Of a stretch of DNA of 64,000 bases, positions 26,784-38,249 are shown in pieces. The number at the start of each line of letters is the position of its first letter. The stretch's first letter is position 1. The notes beneath the pieces are model-generated. The model was not told the origin of the DNA. It did not search any database and was given only the letters and a program-made list of their open reading frames with translations. The position numbers were made by a program, and so were the translations under genes. The DNA is from Verrucomicrobiota bacterium (GTDB lineage Bacteria; Verrucomicrobiota; Verrucomicrobiia; Verrucomicrobiales; DEV007), in contig JAGWVU010000021.1 in assembly GCA_018970725.1 (NCBI GenBank), positions 1-64,000 on the forward strand. Reading direction: 5' to 3'.

Positions 26784-28631
26784 TCATGGGACCTGACGGC
26801 CGAAGCGTTTCTCCAGATCGCCGTAGGAGAGTTGGATCAAGGTGGGGCGGCCGTGCGGGCAGCAATAGGGCAGTTCGCAGGCAAGGAGATCGGCGAGCAA
26901 TCTTTGGAGTTCGGGGTCGCGGAGGGTGTCGTTGGCCTTCACGGCGTGCCGGCAGACGGTGGTGGCGACGAGGTCTTCCCCGAGGCGGATGGAGGCGATC
27001 TGCCGGCTGGCTCGTTTGAGTTCCTCGACCACCTCGCTCATGTAGGCCGCCGGGTCGTCGTTCCGGAAAAAAGTCGGTACGCTGTCGATCTTGAGCGTGT
27101 TGGCTCCGAAGGGTTCGGCACCGATCCCGAGCTTTTGGAGGGCCTCCAGATTTTGCTGGACCAGATCGAACTCCCGTGGGGCGAGTTCGACGGTCACGGG
27201 GACGAGGAGCCGTTGGGAGGGGACGCCTTCCGCGGTCATGCGGTTGCGCATTTGTTCGAACAGGATGCGTTCGTGGGCGGCGTGTTGGTCCATCAGCACC
27301 AACCCTTCGGCGGACTCCATGAGCACGTAGAGTTTGCCGAGGACGCCGATGATCCGGAAATCCTCTGTGGTGACGGGGCGGTTGGCGGGGGAGTTTTCCG
27401 GTTCCGCCTGGGGTTCGGGCTGGAGCGGGGCCGGGGGCGTGGCGGCAGGTGGGGGGAAGGGGGCGTCGTTCCTCGAAGTCTCCGGGGGGCGTGGGGCGGG
27501 CGGGAGGGAGGCCCAGTCGTTGCGGAGCGCCGTCTGTTCCCGTTCGGGGATCAGGGGGACCTGGTGCCATCTTGGGGGGGCCGGGATCTCGGTGCGCCCG
27601 GGGATCATGGGCCGGACACTTTGTCCCGGAACGGTGGTCTGGGCGCGGGTGAGGGTTCGGCGGATGGCTGCGGTGACGGCGTGCCGGACGGCATGGCCAT
27701 CGCGGAAGCGGACCTCCTTTTTGGCCGGGTGGACATTGACATCCACGGCGAAGGGGCTCATTTCGAGAAAGAGAAAGACCACGGGAAACTGGCCCTTCAT
27801 GAGTGCGGTGTGATAGCCCTCGCGGAGGGCATGGTTGAGGGGGGCGGCCTCGACGGGGCGACCGTTGAGGAAGGTCAGTTGGAGGGAGCGGTTGGAGCGC
27901 CCCATCCCGAAGCCGCCGATGTAGCCGGAGACCTTGATATCCCCGTCCCCGTCGGGTTCGATTTCGAGCAAGCGGGTGGCGATCTCCGCTCCGGCGAGGC
28001 CTTGGATGCGTTCGAGGAGATGGCTCCGGGCCGGGAGCATGAAGTGCGGGCGGTCGTTGTGGATGAGGGTGAAGCCGACCTCGGGGTGGGCGATGGCCTG
28101 GAGGCGCACCTGTTGTTCCAGGTGACTGAACTCGGTGGCTTCTGTGCGGAGGAATTTGCGGCGGGCGGGGACGTTGTAGAACAGGGAGCGGACCTCCACC
28201 GTGGTTCCGGGGGCCTCCCCCGCGTCCTTGACTCCGCCGAGTTTGCCGCCATCGACGACGACCTCGGTGCCCTGCAAGGCCTCTTTTTCGCGGGTGGTGA
28301 GGCGGAAACGGGAAACGCTGGCGATGCTGGGAATGGCCTCGCCGCGGAAGCCGAGGGTGCGGATGCCATCAAGATCCTCGGTGGAGCGGATCTTCGAGGT
28401 GGCATGTCGTTCCAAGCACATCAGGGCATCGTCCCGGTTCATGCCGGAGCCGTCGTCGACCACCCGGATGAGGCTGATGCCGCCCCGGTTTGCGATGACT
28501 TCGAGGTTCCCCGCGCCGGCGTCGAGGCTGTTTTCGACGAGTTCCTTGACCACGGAGGCGGGGCGGTCGACCACCTCTCCGGCGGCGACTTGACTGGCGA
28601 GGGCGTCGGGAAGGATTCGAATTCGGCCCAT
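26784..28631 (-). CDS. mutL: DNA mismatch repair protein MutL
   Basis: The 615-residue protein has the GHKL ATPase domain at the N-terminus: VVKELVENSLDAGA, VDDGSGM and GFRGEAIPS. A transducer part and a Pro-rich linker follow (residues ~330-420). The C-terminal dimerisation/endonuclease domain has DQHA..E....E (in DQHAAHERILFEQ) and CPHGRP. These two mark endonuclease-type MutL, which nicks the new strand and replaces MutH. The ATG at 28631 begins MGRIRILPDALASQVAAGEV. It diverges from the Fe-S carrier gene. No mutS is in the window. Confidence 0.96.
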   Translation of the reverse strand: MGRIRILPDALASQVAAGEVVDRPASVVKELVENSLDAGAGNLEVIANRGGISLIRVVDDGSGMNRDDALMCLERHATSKIRSTEDLDGIRTLGFRGEAIPSIASVSRFRLTTREKEALQGTEVVVDGGKLGGVKDAGEAPGTTVEVRSLFYNVPARRKFLRTEATEFSHLEQQVRLQAIAHPEVGFTLIHNDRPHFMLPARSHLLERIQGLAGAEIATRLLEIEPDGDGDIKVSGYIGGFGMGRSNRSLQLTFLNGRPVEAAPLNHALREGYHTALMKGQFPVVFLFLEMSPFAVDVNVHPAKKEVRFRDGHAVRHAVTAAIRRTLTRAQTTVPGQSVRPMIPGRTEIPAPPRWHQVPLIPEREQTALRNDWASLPPAPRPPETSRNDAPFPPPAATPPAPLQPEPQAEPENSPANRPVTTEDFRIIGVLGKLYVLMESAEGLVLMDQHAAHERILFEQMRNRMTAEGVPSQRLLVPVTVELAPREFDLVQQNLEALQKLGIGAEPFGANTLKIDSVPTFFRNDDPAAYMSEVVEELKRASRQIASIRLGEDLVATTVCRHAVKANDTLRDPELQRLLADLLACELPYCCPHGRPTLIQLSYGDLEKRFGRQVP

Positions 28632-28697
28632 GGCGGGGTTGGGGGATGGCGGCTGCGGGTTGACCGGAGCGGGTTTCGGATCTAACCTGCCATTCAC

Positions 28698-29030
28698 ATG
28701 ATCACTGTCACCGGGGAGGCCGTCAACCAACTTCGTGCCATGTTAGAGGAGAAAGGCGGGGTGGCGGAAGGCTGCGGGCTCCGCCTCGCGGTGGAGAAGG
28801 GAGGGTGCGCGGGGATGCAATACACGATGCGTCTGGCGCCGCCGGCGGACGGGGACGAGGTGGTGGAAGCGGGGGGGGTGCGCTTCATCGTGGACCACGC
28901 GAGCCTGCGTTTTCTCGAGGGGAGCCGCGTGGATTACGAGGATTCCCTCAATGATTCCGGCTTCAAGATCCACAATCCCAACGCGGCCCGGAGTTGCGGA
29001 TGCGGCACTTCGTTTGAAGTGGGATCCTGA
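28698..29030 (+). CDS. A-type iron-sulfur carrier protein (IscA/ErpA family)
   Basis: The protein (110 aa) has the three conserved cysteines of the family: one in GGCAGMQY and the C-terminal CGCG pair in RSCGCGTSF. It also has ITVTGEAVNQLRAMLEEKGG at the start and VEAGGVRFIVDHASLRFLEG in the middle. A-type carriers deliver Fe-S clusters to client apoproteins. It is 18 bp upstream of an unknown membrane protein. Confidence 0.93.
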   Translation: MITVTGEAVNQLRAMLEEKGGVAEGCGLRLAVEKGGCAGMQYTMRLAPPADGDEVVEAGGVRFIVDHASLRFLEGSRVDYEDSLNDSGFKIHNPNAARSCGCGTSFEVGS

Positions 29031-31898: not shown

Positions 31899-33095
31899 AT
31901 GAAGACTCAAACGAACATCGCCCTCGCCATGAAACCTGAACCTCTCCATCCACTCCCCTATCACCAACAGATCGCCCGGTATTTCCAAAGCCGGTATTCC
32001 GCCGTCTGGGCTTCCTTCGATGCGGCCCGGAGAGCGGAAATCCGCCGGTCGGAGGTGGAGTTGAAACTGCTCAAGACTTCTTTCCGGCTCTCCGAGACGG
32101 ATCACCCCGGGCTTTACGAGGCGGTGGCCCGGGCCCGCTCCATCCTGGGATTGGAGCAACCGATCATCCTGTATCAATCGAACCGCGCGCATCAGGACAA
32201 CGCCGCGATGTTTTTCACGGAGAAAGAGGGGCATCTCCAGTTCGAAGGAGAGATTCTCAAGGTGTTGCGGCCGGAGGAAATCGCGGCCGTAATTGGTCAT
32301 GAAGCGGGGCATTACAAGTTGTGGACGCTCGACGACGGCCGCTACCACACCACCTCCCGGATCCTGGACACGATCAAGGCGCAGGGAGATCTGCACCCCA
32401 GTCTCAAAGAGAGCTGCCGGCTCTTTCAGTTATATACCGAGATTTACTGTGACCGCGCCGGGGCGTCGGTCGCGGGAAGCGCGGAGCCGATGGTTTCGGC
32501 GCTGGTGCGTCTTGCGGCGGGGGAGGTAATCGTGTCACCCGCGGACTACATCGCGCAAGCCGAGGAAATCTTCCGGAGATCGGGCGCGGAATGCAGCCAT
32601 GGGGATACCCATCCGGAGAGATTCATCCGGGCACGGGCGGTGGCCCGGTGGTTCGGCAGGGATATGGCGCGGCCGGAGGGCGAGTTGGATCGGTTGATCG
32701 AGCAAATGATCGGAGGACGCAAGGGGTTGAACGAGATCGATGCGGTGGCCCGGGATCGGCTGGCGGATTGGACCCGGACGATTTTGCGTCATCTCGACGA
32801 GAGCGTCCGAGAGGTGCGGACCACGGGTTGGCAGAAGCACTTCGACCGGTTTCAGCCGGGCGACGGAAATCCGCCCGGGGAGGGGAGTCCGACCCTGGAA
32901 GGAATTCGCGAGGGGTTGGCCGGTGAATCCGGGACGATCCGGGATTACTTCGTGTTTCTCCTGATGGACTTCGCGGCGGTGGATCCCTCGGTGGAAAAAT
33001 TCATGACGCAGTGCAAGGAAACGGCCGTGCTGTTGGGATTGGAATGCCGTTTCGACGAGCTTGTGCAGCGGGACCTCATCGCCTTGGCCGCCTGA
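31899..33095 (+). CDS. HExxH metalloprotease (M48-like) paired with helicase
   Basis: The 398-residue protein contains GHEAGHYKLW near residue 135, the HExxH zinc motif, and YTEIYCDRAGA ~45 residues later, which offers the third zinc ligand as in M48 peptidases. No membrane span or signal peptide is seen, so it is cytosolic, unlike HtpX. The N-terminal half is helical with paired charges. The C-terminal ~150 residues are helical and unlike any family I know. The start is uncertain: ATG 31899 or 31929, neither with a clear ribosome site. The large helicase gene begins 18 bp downstream, so the two form one operon. Confidence 0.8.
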   Translation: MKTQTNIALAMKPEPLHPLPYHQQIARYFQSRYSAVWASFDAARRAEIRRSEVELKLLKTSFRLSETDHPGLYEAVARARSILGLEQPIILYQSNRAHQDNAAMFFTEKEGHLQFEGEILKVLRPEEIAAVIGHEAGHYKLWTLDDGRYHTTSRILDTIKAQGDLHPSLKESCRLFQLYTEIYCDRAGASVAGSAEPMVSALVRLAAGEVIVSPADYIAQAEEIFRRSGAECSHGDTHPERFIRARAVARWFGRDMARPEGELDRLIEQMIGGRKGLNEIDAVARDRLADWTRTILRHLDESVREVRTTGWQKHFDRFQPGDGNPPGEGSPTLEGIREGLAGESGTIRDYFVFLLMDFAAVDPSVEKFMTQCKETAVLLGLECRFDELVQRDLIALAA

Positions 33096-33113
33096 AACCA
33101 GAGGCAACAAACA

Positions 33114-36100
33114 ATGACCTTGAAACCTTTGATCATGGAAAATCCTCCCTCATTCACCTTCCCGGAACTCCTCGCCGGCGTCCGGAAAAAGCGCTTGGAC
33201 GCCGAGCAGATCGTGGCGGCGATCTTGCCGCTCATCGATCAGGTGCTGGAGAGTCACGAGCGTGGTTTGGTCGCTCCCCTGTCGGGGATCGGTTCCATCC
33301 AAGTGACGGAGGGCCGGTTGGGCTATCGGCCCGTTGAGGCCCACTGTCCATCGTTCCAACAAGCCGCTTTGGACCGGATTGACACCTTCTTGAAGCTGCC
33401 GTTTGACGTCGCCCAGTTCACGCAGGGCAACCAGAACGGTCTGGTGCTCGACCTGAATTCCCCCGTCAGGCTTCCATCTTACATCGCCGGTTATACCACC
33501 TGGGAGCAGAGGGTGGGGCATCATGACCCGGTCACCGATGTGTTCGCCATCGGCATGATTCTGGCCAGTCTGGCCCTGGGCCTGGACTTCCGGGATCGTG
33601 ACGACTTGATCCGGTTTGTGGAGAACCGCCATGATCTCTTCCAACTTGACCGGAACTTGCATCCCACCATCCAAAGGGTGATCCTGAAGACCACCGAAAG
33701 GTCGCGCAGGCGGAGAGTGCAGGATCTGGAATCGGTCCGGAACCTCCTGCGCAATTTCCGGGCGGGGAACCGGCGGATGGGCGCCGGGGCTCCGGAAAAC
33801 CTGGTGTATGGGGACAAGGTGTCCGCCATTCTGAGGGCCTTGCGTGACCGGTTATTCGATCTCTCCAAGCGCAACAAGTTGATCCATCATGAATCGACCG
33901 CGCAATTCGTGAATCTGACGGCCGCCTCGTTTCCCCGGACTCTGGCCTATCAGAACATCGACCGGCAGCAGCTCTTCATTTGGCAGCCGGATCTGGAGGA
34001 GCGTTTTCGCGAGGGGCGGACGATCCCGCTCGATCGTTATCTATCCGGGGAAGCCAAGACAAAAGCGTTCGCGGCCTTGCAGCAGGCGCGTGCGGCGGCG
34101 GCGAAGGATGAGAAGGAGTTCGGGTTTTCGAATCTGCGGCTCGTTCTCGCCTTTTTGCATTGGCACAACCTGAAGGATGAGGCGGCGAAGAATCAAGTGA
34201 TCCATTCCCCGTTGCTTCTGCTGCCGGTCTCTCTTGAGGTGGTGCCCGGGGTTGCCGAGTCCTTCAATCTTAAACCGCGCGGGACGGAGGCGGAGGTCAA
34301 TCCGGCGCTGCGTTATCATCTGAAGACGTTATACAATCTGGATCTGCCCGAGCGAATCGATCTCGCGATGACGACGCCGCAGGAATTCGCCACGGCCCTC
34401 GCGAAGATGATCGAGGACAGTCACGCCGGGATGAGCCTGGAGATCGTCGCGCAACCCCGCATCCGCGTCCGCTGCGAGACGGTGATTTACCGGCCGGTGA
34501 ACAACGAACTGCCGAATGGTCTCTGTGGGGATTTGGTGAGTCAATTCTGCGGGGTGGATTATTCCTATCGCACCAATCCAATGACGCCGCTCGGGATTCG
34601 TCTGTTCGAGAGCTATGTCCGGCCGGTTTCGCTGCCCTTGGAATATGCCCACTATGAGCAGGAGAACTACGACTTGATTTTGGAAGCCGAGGCCAATCCG
34701 TGCCGCTGGGAGTTGGATCTATGTTCGATGACGCTGGGGAACTTTGATTTCCAAAAGATGACCCTGGTGAAGGATTACGAGGAGCTGTTGGCGAGAGGGG
34801 GCAGGCACAATGCGTTCGACGACCTTTTTTCCCCGGGTGTCAGGCCGGCTGCGGAACCATTGATGGGCTTGCCGATCGGCGATCAGAATTTGATTGCATC
34901 GGCCGATCCGACCCAGGTTTCGGCCATTGCGCAGGCGCGCATGGGGCGGAACATGATCATCCAAGGGCCGCCGGGGACGGGCAAGTCCCAGACGATCACG
35001 AACTTGATGGCGGATTGTGTGGCGCAGGGAAAGCGGGTCTTGTTCGTCTGTGAGAAGCGGGCCGCGCTCGATGTGGTCCATGCGAGGTTGGACCGGGCCG
35101 GTCTGGGGGAACTGGCGGTCTTGATCCATGATTCCCAAGGGGACCGGGGACGCTTTCTGAGGAATCTGGAAGAGTCGTATCACAGTGTTTTGGTGACCGG
35201 AGGCGCGGCTCCCGGGGAGTCGTTGACGAGTGAGGTGGTGGCTGCGATCGAACAGAAGCTGAAGCTGATCCGCACCTTCGAGGCAGAGCTCAAGGGAACG
35301 ATGGGGGGACCGGGGCGCAGTATCCTGGAGATTTACGAGCGGTTGATCGAGCTCCAGCCGCACGCTTCGAGGCTTGAGCCCGGGTTGGTGGACCGCCTGC
35401 CCGGATATGAGACGTGGAACGAGCACGCGCCAACGATCTATCTCCTCGCGGAAGCGCTGAAGGCCGTGGGCCGGCGCCGGACGTTGCGGGGGACTCCGTT
35501 GTCTGAACTGGCCACCTCTTGTTTTTCGGGGCGGATGGCGGCGGAAGGGATCTCCCGGGAATTGAGGGGGCGCGAGGAGCCGGTGAGGCGATTGGTCGAT
35601 CTGATGGAAGAATTGGACCGGATTTTCGGCAGCCTGAGTTTGGGAGAGATGCCTCCGTTGGTGGAAGTGGCTTCCCATGCGCACTATTTCGTCACCCATG
35701 ATCTGATGGGGATGATCCGTCCGGAAAGTTTTGAATCCCGCCGGTTGCGGGAATTGGACGAGGAGATGGCCGGACTGTTGGCCGGGAGGGACCGGACGCG
35801 GGAGGAGAACCGGAATTGGAAGGAGAAACTGCCGCCGGCGGAGGTGGGGGGCGCACTGGGAATTTCCCGGTATCTGGATCAGGCGCATTGGCGGTTTTTG
35901 CATCGCCGGTATTGGCGGCTGCGCGGGATCCTGAGGAGCCGTTATGATTTCAAGAGTCATGCGGTGGCCCCGGAATGGACCCGGGTGTTGGGATCATTGG
36001 AAGAGGAATATCGGCTCGGGGAACAGATCGAGGTTCTGGCGGGGCGGATCCGGCGGGAATTCCTCGTTTCCGACAGCGGGAGGCTGCTGGAAACGACGCG

Positions 36101-38249
36101 TCGGTTGCGGGAGTTGCAGCGGCGGCTGCCCGGCACGGAGCGGATGCGCGAGTTGCTGCAAGTGTTGTCCAGCCATCGGGACAGCCAGAGGGTTGTGACC
36201 GGTCTGTATCTGGCCGGGCAGGCGTTGGAGGAGTTGAAGGGGTTGGAGCAGATCCTGCCCCGTTACCAGGACCGGACGGCGAAGGAATTGCGGGACATCT
36301 TCACCGGAGTGCTCCGGGATTTGCCCTTGCTGCCGGAGTTGGCGGAAAGTTTCCGGGGGGTTTTGGCGCTCCCGCCGGAAATTGGCCGGACGGTGAGGGA
36401 TCTGGACCTGGAGCCGGAAACGATGGAGTCGGCGATCATGGGAAAAGCCCTACAGGATCAAGTGGGGGGTAAGGGCGGCTTGAACGCGCTGGATGGCAGC
36501 ACCTTCCAACGTGCCCGCGATGAACTCTCCCAGTTGTATGGCGCTTGGATCCAGAACAAGGGACGGAAGTTGGCCGGGACGGCGCGGCAGGCGGCTTGGA
36601 AGGCGATGCAGCTTCCGGCAGGTTCCCGGGACCATTTGCCGGCGGCCGAGCGGGAACGGCTCCGGCGGGTCCAGAGTGGCAAGGAGCTGCTCGAGCAGCA
36701 GTTCGGTCTGAAACAGCGCTTCAAATCGATCCGCGAGATCGCGACGGGGAGCCGGGCCTTCCTGTTCGACCTCAAGCCGGTGTGGTTGATGAGTCCGCTC
36801 AGCGTCTCCCAGACGTTGCCGATGGAGACCGACCTCTTCGATGTGGTGATTTTCGACGAGGCGAGCCAGATCAAGCTGGAGGATGCGATACCCTCGATTT
36901 TCCGGGGCAAACAGGTCATCGTGGTGGGGGACCAAATGCAGTTGCCGCCAACGAACTTCTTCAGCGCGAACACTCTGGAGGAGGAGACGGTGGTCCGCTT
37001 CAGGGACGGGGACGGGATCGGCGCGATCGATCTGTCCGCGGACAGTCTCCTGACCCACGCCATTCCGCGTTTGCCGGACACGTTGTTGGGCTGGCATTAC
37101 CGGAGCCGGCACGAGGCGCTCATCAGTTTCTCGAACCAAGCCTTCTACGAGGGCAAGCTTCTCACTGTTCCGGACCGGCAGGCCGTGGAGGAGCTGCGGG
37201 AACCCATCGTGCTGCGGGATCCGGCGGACACGGCGGAGGCCTTGCGGGCGGCAATGGAACGGAGCATCAGCGTGCACGAGGTTCGCGGCGGGGAGTACGA
37301 GGATCGACGCAACCGCAAGGAGGCAAGGGCCATCGCGGGGTTGGTCCGAGATCTCTTGCGGCGGCAGCGCGGGGTGGAAGGAGGGGAGCGTCAGACGATC
37401 GGCGTGGTGGCCTTTTCCGATGCCCAACAGCAGGAGATCGACCGCGCGCTGGAACAGTTGGCGCGGGAGGATCTGGAGTTCAAAGGGCTGCTTGCCGCGG
37501 AGCGGGAGCGTGCCGATGGAGGAGAGTTCACGGGATTGTTCGTTAAAAACCTGGAGAACGTCCAGGGGGATGAGCGGGACATCATCATCCTGAGCGTTTG
37601 CTTCGCGCCGGGGAGGGACGGGTCCATGAAGATGAACTTCGGTCCCATCAACCAAGCCGGGGGAGAGAAGCGGTTGAACGTGATTCTCTCCCGCGCCCGG
37701 CGGCACATGATGGTGGTGACCTCGATCAAGTCGGACCAGATCACGAATGTCTGGAATGACGGGGCGCGGTGTTTGCGCAACTTCCTGGAATACGCCGACG
37801 CGGTCTCGACGGGGGATCGCGAGGGGGTGGAACGGGTCTTGCGGCGGTTGCAGTCGGCTGGGCGCGGTCCGGAGAACGAACCCGGGGAGCGGAGCGGAGC
37901 GTCCGGCGGATCGGTCACGGCCAAGGCGCTGGCCGAGGCCTTGGCCGGGCGGGGCTATGCGGTCTCCATGGGCAACGGCGACTCCGGATTCAAGATTGAT
38001 CTGGCGGTCCGGCGACCGGGCAGCGCACTCTATGATCTGGCGATCCTGCTGGATGGACAGGTGCGTTCGGCCGGCGCGGATTGCTTGGAACGGGCGGTGC
38101 TGCGCCCCGGCATGCTCAAGGATTACGGCTGGCGGGTGCTGGACGTGTTGAGCAAGGACTGGTATGAAAATCCCAACGAGGTCTTGGCGCAGATTGAGAG
38201 TGCCCTCGGGGGACCCGGATCCTTGCTTCAGACCGGCTCGCTCAACTGA
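33114..38249 (+). CDS. Pseudokinase-DUF4011-SF1 helicase-nuclease fusion
   Basis: The 1711-residue protein runs in four parts. Residues ~20-220 resemble the C-lobe of a protein kinase (YIAGYTTWEQ, TDVFAIGMILASLALGLDF) without the HRD catalytic loop. Residues ~240-560 are DUF4011 (LRDRLFDLSKRNKLI, RLVLAFLHW). A split COG1112-type SF1 helicase follows, with Walker A GPPGTGKSQT near residue 619, a ~600-residue coiled insert, DEAS near 1247, GDQMQLPPT near 1273, and the late LSRARRHMMVVT. Residues ~1600-1710 look like a Vsr/MTES_1575-type nuclease (FKIDLAVRRPG, DYGWRVLDVLSKDW), but the usual acidic residue before DG reads Leu. AGAGG lies 8 bases before the ATG at 33114. Kinase-helicase-nuclease proteins are known in phage defence; this one is preceded by a protease. 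Confidence 0.85.
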   Translation: MTLKPLIMENPPSFTFPELLAGVRKKRLDAEQIVAAILPLIDQVLESHERGLVAPLSGIGSIQVTEGRLGYRPVEAHCPSFQQAALDRIDTFLKLPFDVAQFTQGNQNGLVLDLNSPVRLPSYIAGYTTWEQRVGHHDPVTDVFAIGMILASLALGLDFRDRDDLIRFVENRHDLFQLDRNLHPTIQRVILKTTERSRRRRVQDLESVRNLLRNFRAGNRRMGAGAPENLVYGDKVSAILRALRDRLFDLSKRNKLIHHESTAQFVNLTAASFPRTLAYQNIDRQQLFIWQPDLEERFREGRTIPLDRYLSGEAKTKAFAALQQARAAAAKDEKEFGFSNLRLVLAFLHWHNLKDEAAKNQVIHSPLLLLPVSLEVVPGVAESFNLKPRGTEAEVNPALRYHLKTLYNLDLPERIDLAMTTPQEFATALAKMIEDSHAGMSLEIVAQPRIRVRCETVIYRPVNNELPNGLCGDLVSQFCGVDYSYRTNPMTPLGIRLFESYVRPVSLPLEYAHYEQENYDLILEAEANPCRWELDLCSMTLGNFDFQKMTLVKDYEELLARGGRHNAFDDLFSPGVRPAAEPLMGLPIGDQNLIASADPTQVSAIAQARMGRNMIIQGPPGTGKSQTITNLMADCVAQGKRVLFVCEKRAALDVVHARLDRAGLGELAVLIHDSQGDRGRFLRNLEESYHSVLVTGGAAPGESLTSEVVAAIEQKLKLIRTFEAELKGTMGGPGRSILEIYERLIELQPHASRLEPGLVDRLPGYETWNEHAPTIYLLAEALKAVGRRRTLRGTPLSELATSCFSGRMAAEGISRELRGREEPVRRLVDLMEELDRIFGSLSLGEMPPLVEVASHAHYFVTHDLMGMIRPESFESRRLRELDEEMAGLLAGRDRTREENRNWKEKLPPAEVGGALGISRYLDQAHWRFLHRRYWRLRGILRSRYDFKSHAVAPEWTRVLGSLEEEYRLGEQIEVLAGRIRREFLVSDSGRLLETTRRLRELQRRLPGTERMRELLQVLSSHRDSQRVVTGLYLAGQALEELKGLEQILPRYQDRTAKELRDIFTGVLRDLPLLPELAESFRGVLALPPEIGRTVRDLDLEPETMESAIMGKALQDQVGGKGGLNALDGSTFQRARDELSQLYGAWIQNKGRKLAGTARQAAWKAMQLPAGSRDHLPAAERERLRRVQSGKELLEQQFGLKQRFKSIREIATGSRAFLFDLKPVWLMSPLSVSQTLPMETDLFDVVIFDEASQIKLEDAIPSIFRGKQVIVVGDQMQLPPTNFFSANTLEEETVVRFRDGDGIGAIDLSADSLLTHAIPRLPDTLLGWHYRSRHEALISFSNQAFYEGKLLTVPDRQAVEELREPIVLRDPADTAEALRAAMERSISVHEVRGGEYEDRRNRKEARAIAGLVRDLLRRQRGVEGGERQTIGVVAFSDAQQQEIDRALEQLAREDLEFKGLLAAERERADGGEFTGLFVKNLENVQGDERDIIILSVCFAPGRDGSMKMNFGPINQAGGEKRLNVILSRARRHMMVVTSIKSDQITNVWNDGARCLRNFLEYADAVSTGDREGVERVLRRLQSAGRGPENEPGERSGASGGSVTAKALAEALAGRGYAVSMGNGDSGFKIDLAVRRPGSALYDLAILLDGQVRSAGADCLERAVLRPGMLKDYGWRVLDVLSKDWYENPNEVLAQIESALGGPGSLLQTGSLN

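What the first reader, a model, noticed from the sequence alone, without database searches (positions are those of the whole stretch)
31899..38249. Protease + pseudokinase/helicase/nuclease operon, a candidate new defence system
An HExxH cytosolic protease gene sits 18 bp before a 1711-residue protein that joins a kinase-like fold lacking HRD, DUF4011, a COG1112 SF1 helicase with a ~600-residue insert, and a Vsr/MTES_1575-like C-terminus. Kinase-helicase-nuclease combinations are known in phage defence (Mokosh couples a kinase and a COG1112 helicase to a PLD nuclease). A dedicated zinc protease partner and a Vsr-like nuclease are not part of the versions I know. The protease might cleave the helicase or a host or phage protein on activation.
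Basis: partly seen in the sequence, partly recalled or inferred. Interest (0 to 1): 0.8.

Follow-up and report, generated by a model that had tools for sequence, protein, structure and literature searches.

The report
Helicase paired with a metalloprotease
Bacteria from six phyla carry a tightly linked pair of genes, a zinc-dependent protein-cutting enzyme and a giant DNA-motor protein whose own DNA-cutting domain has decayed, which looks like a machine that cuts proteins when the motor engages DNA, perhaps for phage defence or for clearing proteins stuck on DNA.

Summary
The M48-type metalloprotease (31899-33095) and the 1711-aa pseudokinase-DUF4011-SF1 helicase-MTES_1575 protein (33114-38249) are a real, conserved pair. 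A genome scan with the protease profile gave 80 loci; in 79 the helicase lies next downstream, and the 80th ends at a contig edge. The pairs span six phyla. Protease and helicase distances mirror each other (r=0.96). Two divergent relatives fuse protease and helicase into one polypeptide. Zinc and helicase motifs are essentially invariant.

(1) The nuclease domain is degenerate: the GIECDG glutamate is missing in all 72 family members examined, and the first aspartate in about half, so the protease is the likelier effector. (2) The pair is not in defence islands. Neighbours are mostly housekeeping genes, the tree follows phyla, and no family member was found in plasmids, phages or viral contigs.

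The nearest named families (ProA, Hhe, PDC-S37) are anti-phage helicases, but this protein falls far below the ProA and Hhe cut-offs. I favour a helicase-gated protease module with an immune or stress role; DNA-protein clearance is the main rival. No function has been shown. It is a new variant of a known kind; I found no description of it.

The parts
31899..33095 (+). M48-type zinc metalloprotease, 398 aa (conserved start probably 31929). HExxH 134-138, third ligand in TEIYCDR (E181), D185, THPE (H238-E240). The C-terminal third is all helical and only weakly TerB-like.
   Evidence: HExxH, E181, D185 100% in 80 sequences; model pLDDT 90; Foldseek: ZMPSTE24, selecase, HtpX.
33114..38249 (+). 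1711-aa pseudokinase-DUF4011-SF1 helicase-degenerate nuclease protein (conserved start probably about 33135)
33156..33758 (+). Pseudokinase domain (aa 15-215): protein-kinase fold, mostly C-lobe; HRD replaced by VAPL; conserved APE-like E131, HHD136-138, D142, G147, R198, R201
33849..34322 (+). DUF4011 (aa 246-403)
34905..35183 (+). Helicase first motif block with Walker A GPPGTGKS (aa 598-690), invariant
35184..36653 (+). Fast-evolving helicase insert (aa 691-1180, mean identity 30%)
36654..37793 (+). Helicase second block with Walker B DEAS, motif V QGDERD and motif VI SRAR (aa 1181-1560); motifs invariant or about 98% conserved
37923..38207 (+). MTES_1575 (PD-(D/E)XK, Vsr-like) domain, degenerate: 'KIDLAV...LAILLDG' instead of 'RIDLAV...LGIECDG'

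Best explanation
A two-component helicase-metalloprotease module. The SF1 helicase (with pseudokinase, DUF4011, in most homologues a C-terminal WGR domain, and a decayed nuclease domain kept as a fold) is the DNA-engaging sensor and motor. The M48 protease is its dedicated effector, held by or recruited to the helicase and active when the helicase engages abnormal DNA. On triggering it cuts proteins, probably as a growth-arresting or immune response to phage or genome damage. Shown: the pairing, the fusions, intact protease and helicase motifs, a dead-looking nuclease and pseudokinase, and co-evolution. Inferred: a physical complex, DNA-triggered activation, the substrate, and the immune role.
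For: Adjacency in 79 of 80 protease loci, within 134 nt in 76 and overlapping in 32. In helicase-first samples 5/6 Verrucomicrobiota genomes (pairs) and 11/13 Chitinophagaceae genomes have the protease. Three orphan helicases occur in genomes with no full-length protease, while every evaluable protease lies beside the helicase: the helicase looks like the core and the protease the add-on effector. Two single-polypeptide fusions (G265, 1902 aa; G847, open frame 1934 aa, 40% identical over the N-terminal part) carry the M48 domain and its C-terminal domain joined to DUF4011-helicase-degenerate REase; they are sister to the split family (SH-aLRT 96). HExxH/E181/D185 and Walker A/B are 100% conserved and motif VI about 98%, while the nuclease Glu is absent from 72/72 against 22/32 outgroup helicases that keep it. 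Mirror-tree r=0.96. WGR domain in most homologues. Closest named families are anti-phage helicases. Precedent for the way of working: in protease-fused Hachiman the HamA nuclease motif is lost, and DNA sensed by the HamB helicase triggers the protease (PMC12799240).
Against: No defence-island context or mobility. The gene tree follows phyla with few changes, unusual for an immune system. No substrate, trigger or activity is known. Protein-protein contact was not modelled. The Glu is not essential in every Vsr-like enzyme (own knowledge), so nuclease death is a prediction, and 10/32 outgroup members lack it too.
Confidence: 0.5

Rival explanations
1. Genome-maintenance machine: the helicase tracks along DNA, meets proteins stuck or crosslinked to it, and the metalloprotease digests them, a bacterial analogue of SPRTN/Wss1 coupled to a helicase.
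For: Chromosomal loci shared within genera, with housekeeping flanks, and a tree that follows phyla; no family members in the plasmid, phage and viral collections. Metalloprotease + DNA motor + WGR domain is a natural architecture for it. Weak SprT-like Pfam similarity in 57/67 proteases, best 3.7e-6, and SPRTN (6mdw) among weak fold matches. Repair genes nearby in some lineages: MutL in the window, UvrD upstream in seven Chitinophagaceae loci.
Against: The third zinc ligand and THPE motif are M48-type, and M48 profiles hit more members with a better best score. Present in only 1.5% of the Verrucomicrobiota sample and 6.5% of Chitinophagaceae, low for repair. The nearest named helicases are anti-phage. 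The pair evolves faster than most of its neighbours (about 60% against mostly 69-85% identity).
Confidence: 0.3
2. One reading: an active helicase-nuclease phage restriction system in which the Vsr-like domain cuts DNA and the protease regulates or cleaves the helicase.
For: MTES_1575 fold retained above the Pfam cut-off; Asp1647 still 93% and Asp1629 51% conserved; related families ProA/Hhe are anti-phage.
Against: Glu of GIECDG absent from 72/72; Asp1629 is Ser in 36% of members, the Bacteroidota rows; one natural fusion has lost both; no defence-island context.
Confidence: 0.12
3. The protease matures, releases or turns over the helicase (regulatory processing), and the helicase alone is the working enzyme.
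For: Orphan helicases exist, so the helicase can persist alone; obligate adjacency fits a dedicated processing protease.
Against: The fused forms keep both domains in one chain and the protease catalytic site is kept everywhere. No conserved processing site was looked for.
Confidence: 0.07
4. Chance neighbours: two unrelated genes in one operon.
For: None beyond the absence of direct interaction data.
Against: 79 of 80 loci in six phyla, two fusions, mirror-tree r=0.96.
Confidence: 0.01

Closest known systems
ProA anti-phage protein (NCBIfam NF058533) and PADLOC candidate PDC-S37
   Same: Closest profiles: SF1 helicase with MTES_1575-like C-terminus, aligned over about 1130-1170 residues (E 6e-196 and 3e-195).
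   Different: 654 bits against a cut-off of 1500 for ProA. ProA-profile loci tested (L126-L135) show no protease in the fetched flanks (up to about 1.5 kb) and, where placed, fall outside the M48 clade; several keep GIECDG.
Hhe (NF042953), DUF4011 anti-phage protein
   Same: DUF4011 + SF1 helicase + C-terminal nuclease-like layout.
   Different: 470 bits against a cut-off of 2000; no protease partner is named in that family model.
Mokosh (MkoA/MkoC)
   Same: Related SF1 helicase domain (E 2e-39); Mokosh also joins kinase and helicase (own knowledge).
   Different: Here the kinase fold is a pseudokinase, there is no PLD nuclease, and the partner is an M48 protease.
Protease-type Hachiman (HamMAB; PMC12799240, PMC12278908)
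   Same: Works like it: a helicase senses DNA, the nuclease domain is dead, and a protease is the activated enzyme.
   Different: Different proteins: HamB helicase, trypsin-like protease fused to HamA, and an MBL pro-nuclease substrate that has no counterpart here.
SPRTN/Wss1 DNA-protein crosslink proteases
   Same: DNA-linked zinc metalloprotease idea; weak SprT-like profile hits.
   Different: M48-type ligands; encoded with an SF1 helicase; bacterial.
M48 peptidases (HtpX, ZMPSTE24)
   Same: Catalytic core and the HExxH...ExxxD...HP motif.
   Different: No obvious membrane segment, an extra C-terminal helical domain, and a constant helicase partner.

Membership tests
M48 metallopeptidase | HExxH, downstream Glu ligand, M48 profile above cut-off | tested here: met
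   Pfam 32.8 bits against 20.3; motifs 100% in 80; 67/67 homologues hit M48 at E<=1
ProA (NF058533) | Profile score above 1500 bits | tested here: not met
   654 bits
Hhe (NF042953) | Profile score above 2000 bits | tested here: not met
   470 bits
Mokosh | Active kinase + helicase + PLD nuclease | tested here: not met
   Pseudokinase without HRD/DFG, no PLD domain; the definition itself is from memory and from the finding
DUF4011 SF1 helicase superfamily | DUF4011 plus complete SF1 motifs | tested here: met
Active MTES_1575/PD-(D/E)XK nuclease | Conserved D...E-x-D metal site | tested here: not met
   Glu 0/72, Asp1629 51%; outgroup Asp 32/32, Glu 22/32
Protein kinase (active) | Lys, HRD, DFG | tested here: not met
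   Fold yes, motifs no
Anti-phage defence system | Protects against phage | not testable with these tools
   Needs phage challenge
Anti-phage defence system | Defence-island or mobile-element association | tested here: not met
SprT/SPRTN DPC protease | SprT-like profile above cut-off, His third ligand | tested here: not met
   Window protein 11.8 bits against 25.6; third ligand Glu

The most novel reading that the evidence does not exclude
A previously undescribed, multi-phylum class of helicase-gated proteolysis in bacteria. One ancestor replaced the nuclease output of a DUF4011 defence-type helicase with an M48 metalloprotease, giving either an immune system whose effector is a metalloprotease or a bacterial helicase-protease machine that strips proteins from DNA.
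Probability: 0.5. Interest if true: 0.82.

Novelty: new variant of a known kind. Interest (0 to 1): 0.63.

Why it matters
It would add a metalloprotease to the effectors driven by DNA-sensing helicases and give an independent parallel to protease-type Hachiman, where a helicase's nuclease partner dies and a protease takes over. If the rival is right, it would be a helicase-coupled protease for clearing proteins from bacterial DNA. Either way, a conserved two-gene unit with a clear catalytic mutant (HExxH) makes the question directly testable in cultured bacteria such as Niastella, Longitalea or Chthoniobacter flavus.

Tried and rejected
Chance neighbours: rejected by adjacency in 79 of 80 loci and by the fusions. 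Defence-island membership: PADLOC on 110 neighbours gave only UvrD/SNF2-type hits among the 25 families shown of 67; Pfam gave mostly housekeeping families. No comparison set was run, so this is a count, not an enrichment test. Mobile-element association: no protease relative in 72,556 plasmids, 50,697 phage records or the viral contigs scanned; no helicase of this family in plasmids. Literature: searches for DUF4011 + anti-phage, ProA, Prometheus, M48 + helicase, WGR + conflict systems, Mokosh and Hhe found no description of the pair; the library lacks many subscription papers. That 'ProA' belongs to the system called Prometheus is a guess I could not confirm. TerB identity of the protease C-terminus: suggested by eye and by the fused form, but no Pfam TerB hit, so left as weak. 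The G020 hit (L007) is an ordinary M48-TerB protein with no helicase beside it. A downstream helical gene (5 of 80 loci) was tested as a possible third component and not found in 12 other genomes that carry the family or its fusion. Promoter/terminator scans and Rfam gave nothing useful.
Full report
OBSERVATION. The two ORFs are at the stated positions. The protease hits Pfam Peptidase_M48 above its cut-off. The 1711-aa protein carries DUF4011, two SF1 helicase segments and a C-terminal MTES_1575 domain. The start codons used by homologues suggest true starts near 31929 and 33135.

THE PAIR IS REAL. A search of 96 related genomes with the protease found five full-length members, the window's own included, plus a truncated copy and a generic M48-TerB protein; the helicase follows in all five. 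A scan of one genome per species with the protease alignment kept the best 80 of 115 loci. The helicase lies next downstream on the same strand in 79; the last ends at a contig edge. Spacing is at most 134 nt in 76, counting L077, whose helicase ORF is split, and the ORFs overlap in 32. In three loci (L045, L066, L080) the gap is larger, with a gene between in at least two. Rows come from Verrucomicrobiota, Bacteroidota, Planctomycetota, Pseudomonadota, Myxococcota and Lentisphaerota. Distance matrices of protease and helicase correlate at r=0.96, against 0.17 for the best of 1000 permutations; any pair inherited together would give this too. Starting from the helicase instead, 5 of 6 Verrucomicrobiota genomes and 11 of 13 Chitinophagaceae genomes have the protease. 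The three exceptions have no full-length protease in the genome.

FUSIONS. Genome G265 encodes one 1902-aa protein with M48, DUF4011, AAA_11, AAA_12 and MTES_1575 domains. Profile comparison aligns the protease profile over nearly its whole length to its N-terminus (E 2e-18). A second fusion in G847, of another family, is 40% identical over that part. In both, the N-terminus is the protease and no pseudokinase precedes the helicase part. On a tree of helicase motif blocks the fusions are sister to the split family (SH-aLRT 96), apart from ProA/Hhe-like helicases. The fusion stem is long, so this placement is less sure than the support suggests. In that run L100, L101 and L102 are the same genes as L138, L139 and L140 and should be read as family/fused; outgroup counts are therefore given out of 32.

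ACTIVE SITES. In 80 proteases H134, E135, H138, E181, D185, H238, P239 and R244 are invariant. In 72 helicases Walker A (GPPGTGKS), Walker B (DEAS) and motif V are invariant and motif VI about 98%. The nuclease domain differs: the Glu of GIECDG is L, M, V or another residue in all 72, and the first Asp is D in 51% and S in 36%. Among 32 outgroup DUF4011 helicases, both Asp are kept in all and Glu in 22. So the nuclease is predicted inactive, most clearly in Bacteroidota; some outgroup members have also lost Glu. The kinase-like domain models well (pLDDT 90.5), and its 50 best PDB matches are all protein kinases, but it has no conserved Lys, HRD or DFG. Most homologues end in a WGR domain (Pfam 1.3e-15 in L138); the window's genus lacks it.

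PROTEASE STRUCTURE. The AlphaFold model has pLDDT 90.3 and pTM 0.91. Foldseek's best matches are ZMPSTE24, selecase and HtpX, at modest E-values (best 3e-3); SPRTN follows weakly. The fold beyond the catalytic core has no good PDB match.

CONTEXT. In the window and two genus-mates the pair sits between purB and an amidohydrolase. Flanking genes are mostly 69-85% identical while the pair is about 60%. In other genera the amidohydrolase lacks the helicase beside it. In seven Niastella/Longitalea loci the flanks are shared. PADLOC on 110 neighbours gave only UvrD/SNF2-type hits in the list shown, and Pfam gave mostly housekeeping families, with two integrase hits. Family members were not found in plasmids, phages or viral contigs. 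The helicase tree needs 7 phylum changes, against 5 at least and 33 by shuffling. This looks like mainly vertical inheritance with patchy retention, not a mobile defence cassette.

MECHANISM. The simplest reading is that the helicase senses or moves on DNA and the metalloprotease is its output. The parallel with protease-type Hachiman is close: there the fused HamA has lost its nuclease motif, HamB senses DNA and hydrolyses ATP, and the protease is triggered (PMC12799240). That is a likeness of working, not of family. The substrate here is unknown; no conserved third gene was seen except a helical protein downstream in five Verrucomicrobiota loci. Whether the output is immune or genome maintenance is open. 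Helicase kinship, patchiness and fast evolution favour the first; chromosomal context and vertical descent favour the second.

STATUS. Profile scores exclude ProA (654 of 1500 bits) and Hhe (470 of 2000) membership. No paper found in the library describes the pair. I rate it a new variant of a known kind.

Noticed in passing
L018 11219-13084, L021 16828-17613, L022 16786-18672, L062 15708-17579, L066 11177-13060: A roughly 625-aa protein, apparently all helical (no Pfam hit in the member tested, L062), lies downstream of the helicase on the same strand in five Verrucomicrobiota loci: possible optional third component.
   Followed up: partly
L140 4269-9977 (-) and L196 (G847:C34, open frame 1934 aa): Natural fusions of the M48 protease to the helicase, without the pseudokinase domain.
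   Followed up: yes
L138 (G226), L190 (G626), L191 (G533): Orphan family helicases in genomes without a full-length protease homologue.
   Followed up: yes
L035, L039, L047, L057, L064, L074, L077: A UvrD/PcrA-type helicase gene lies upstream of the pair in seven Bacteroidota (mostly Chitinophagaceae) loci; the locus is shared between genera.
   Followed up: partly
window 26784-28730 (-): MutL mismatch-repair gene about 3 kb upstream of the pair.
   Followed up: no
L016 (CAMCXS010000004.1): The record is titled Akkermansia muciniphila, but its contig has the same length as G001:C4 (171,788 bases) of a 6.5-Mb genus-mate of the window, so the species name looks doubtful.
   Followed up: no
L060, L072, L077, L092: Helicase homology broken into two stretches in different frames or ORFs: pseudogenes or assembly errors.
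   Followed up: no
L007 1264-2580 (+): Stand-alone M48-TerB protein with no helicase beside it, a distant relative of the protease.
   Followed up: partly
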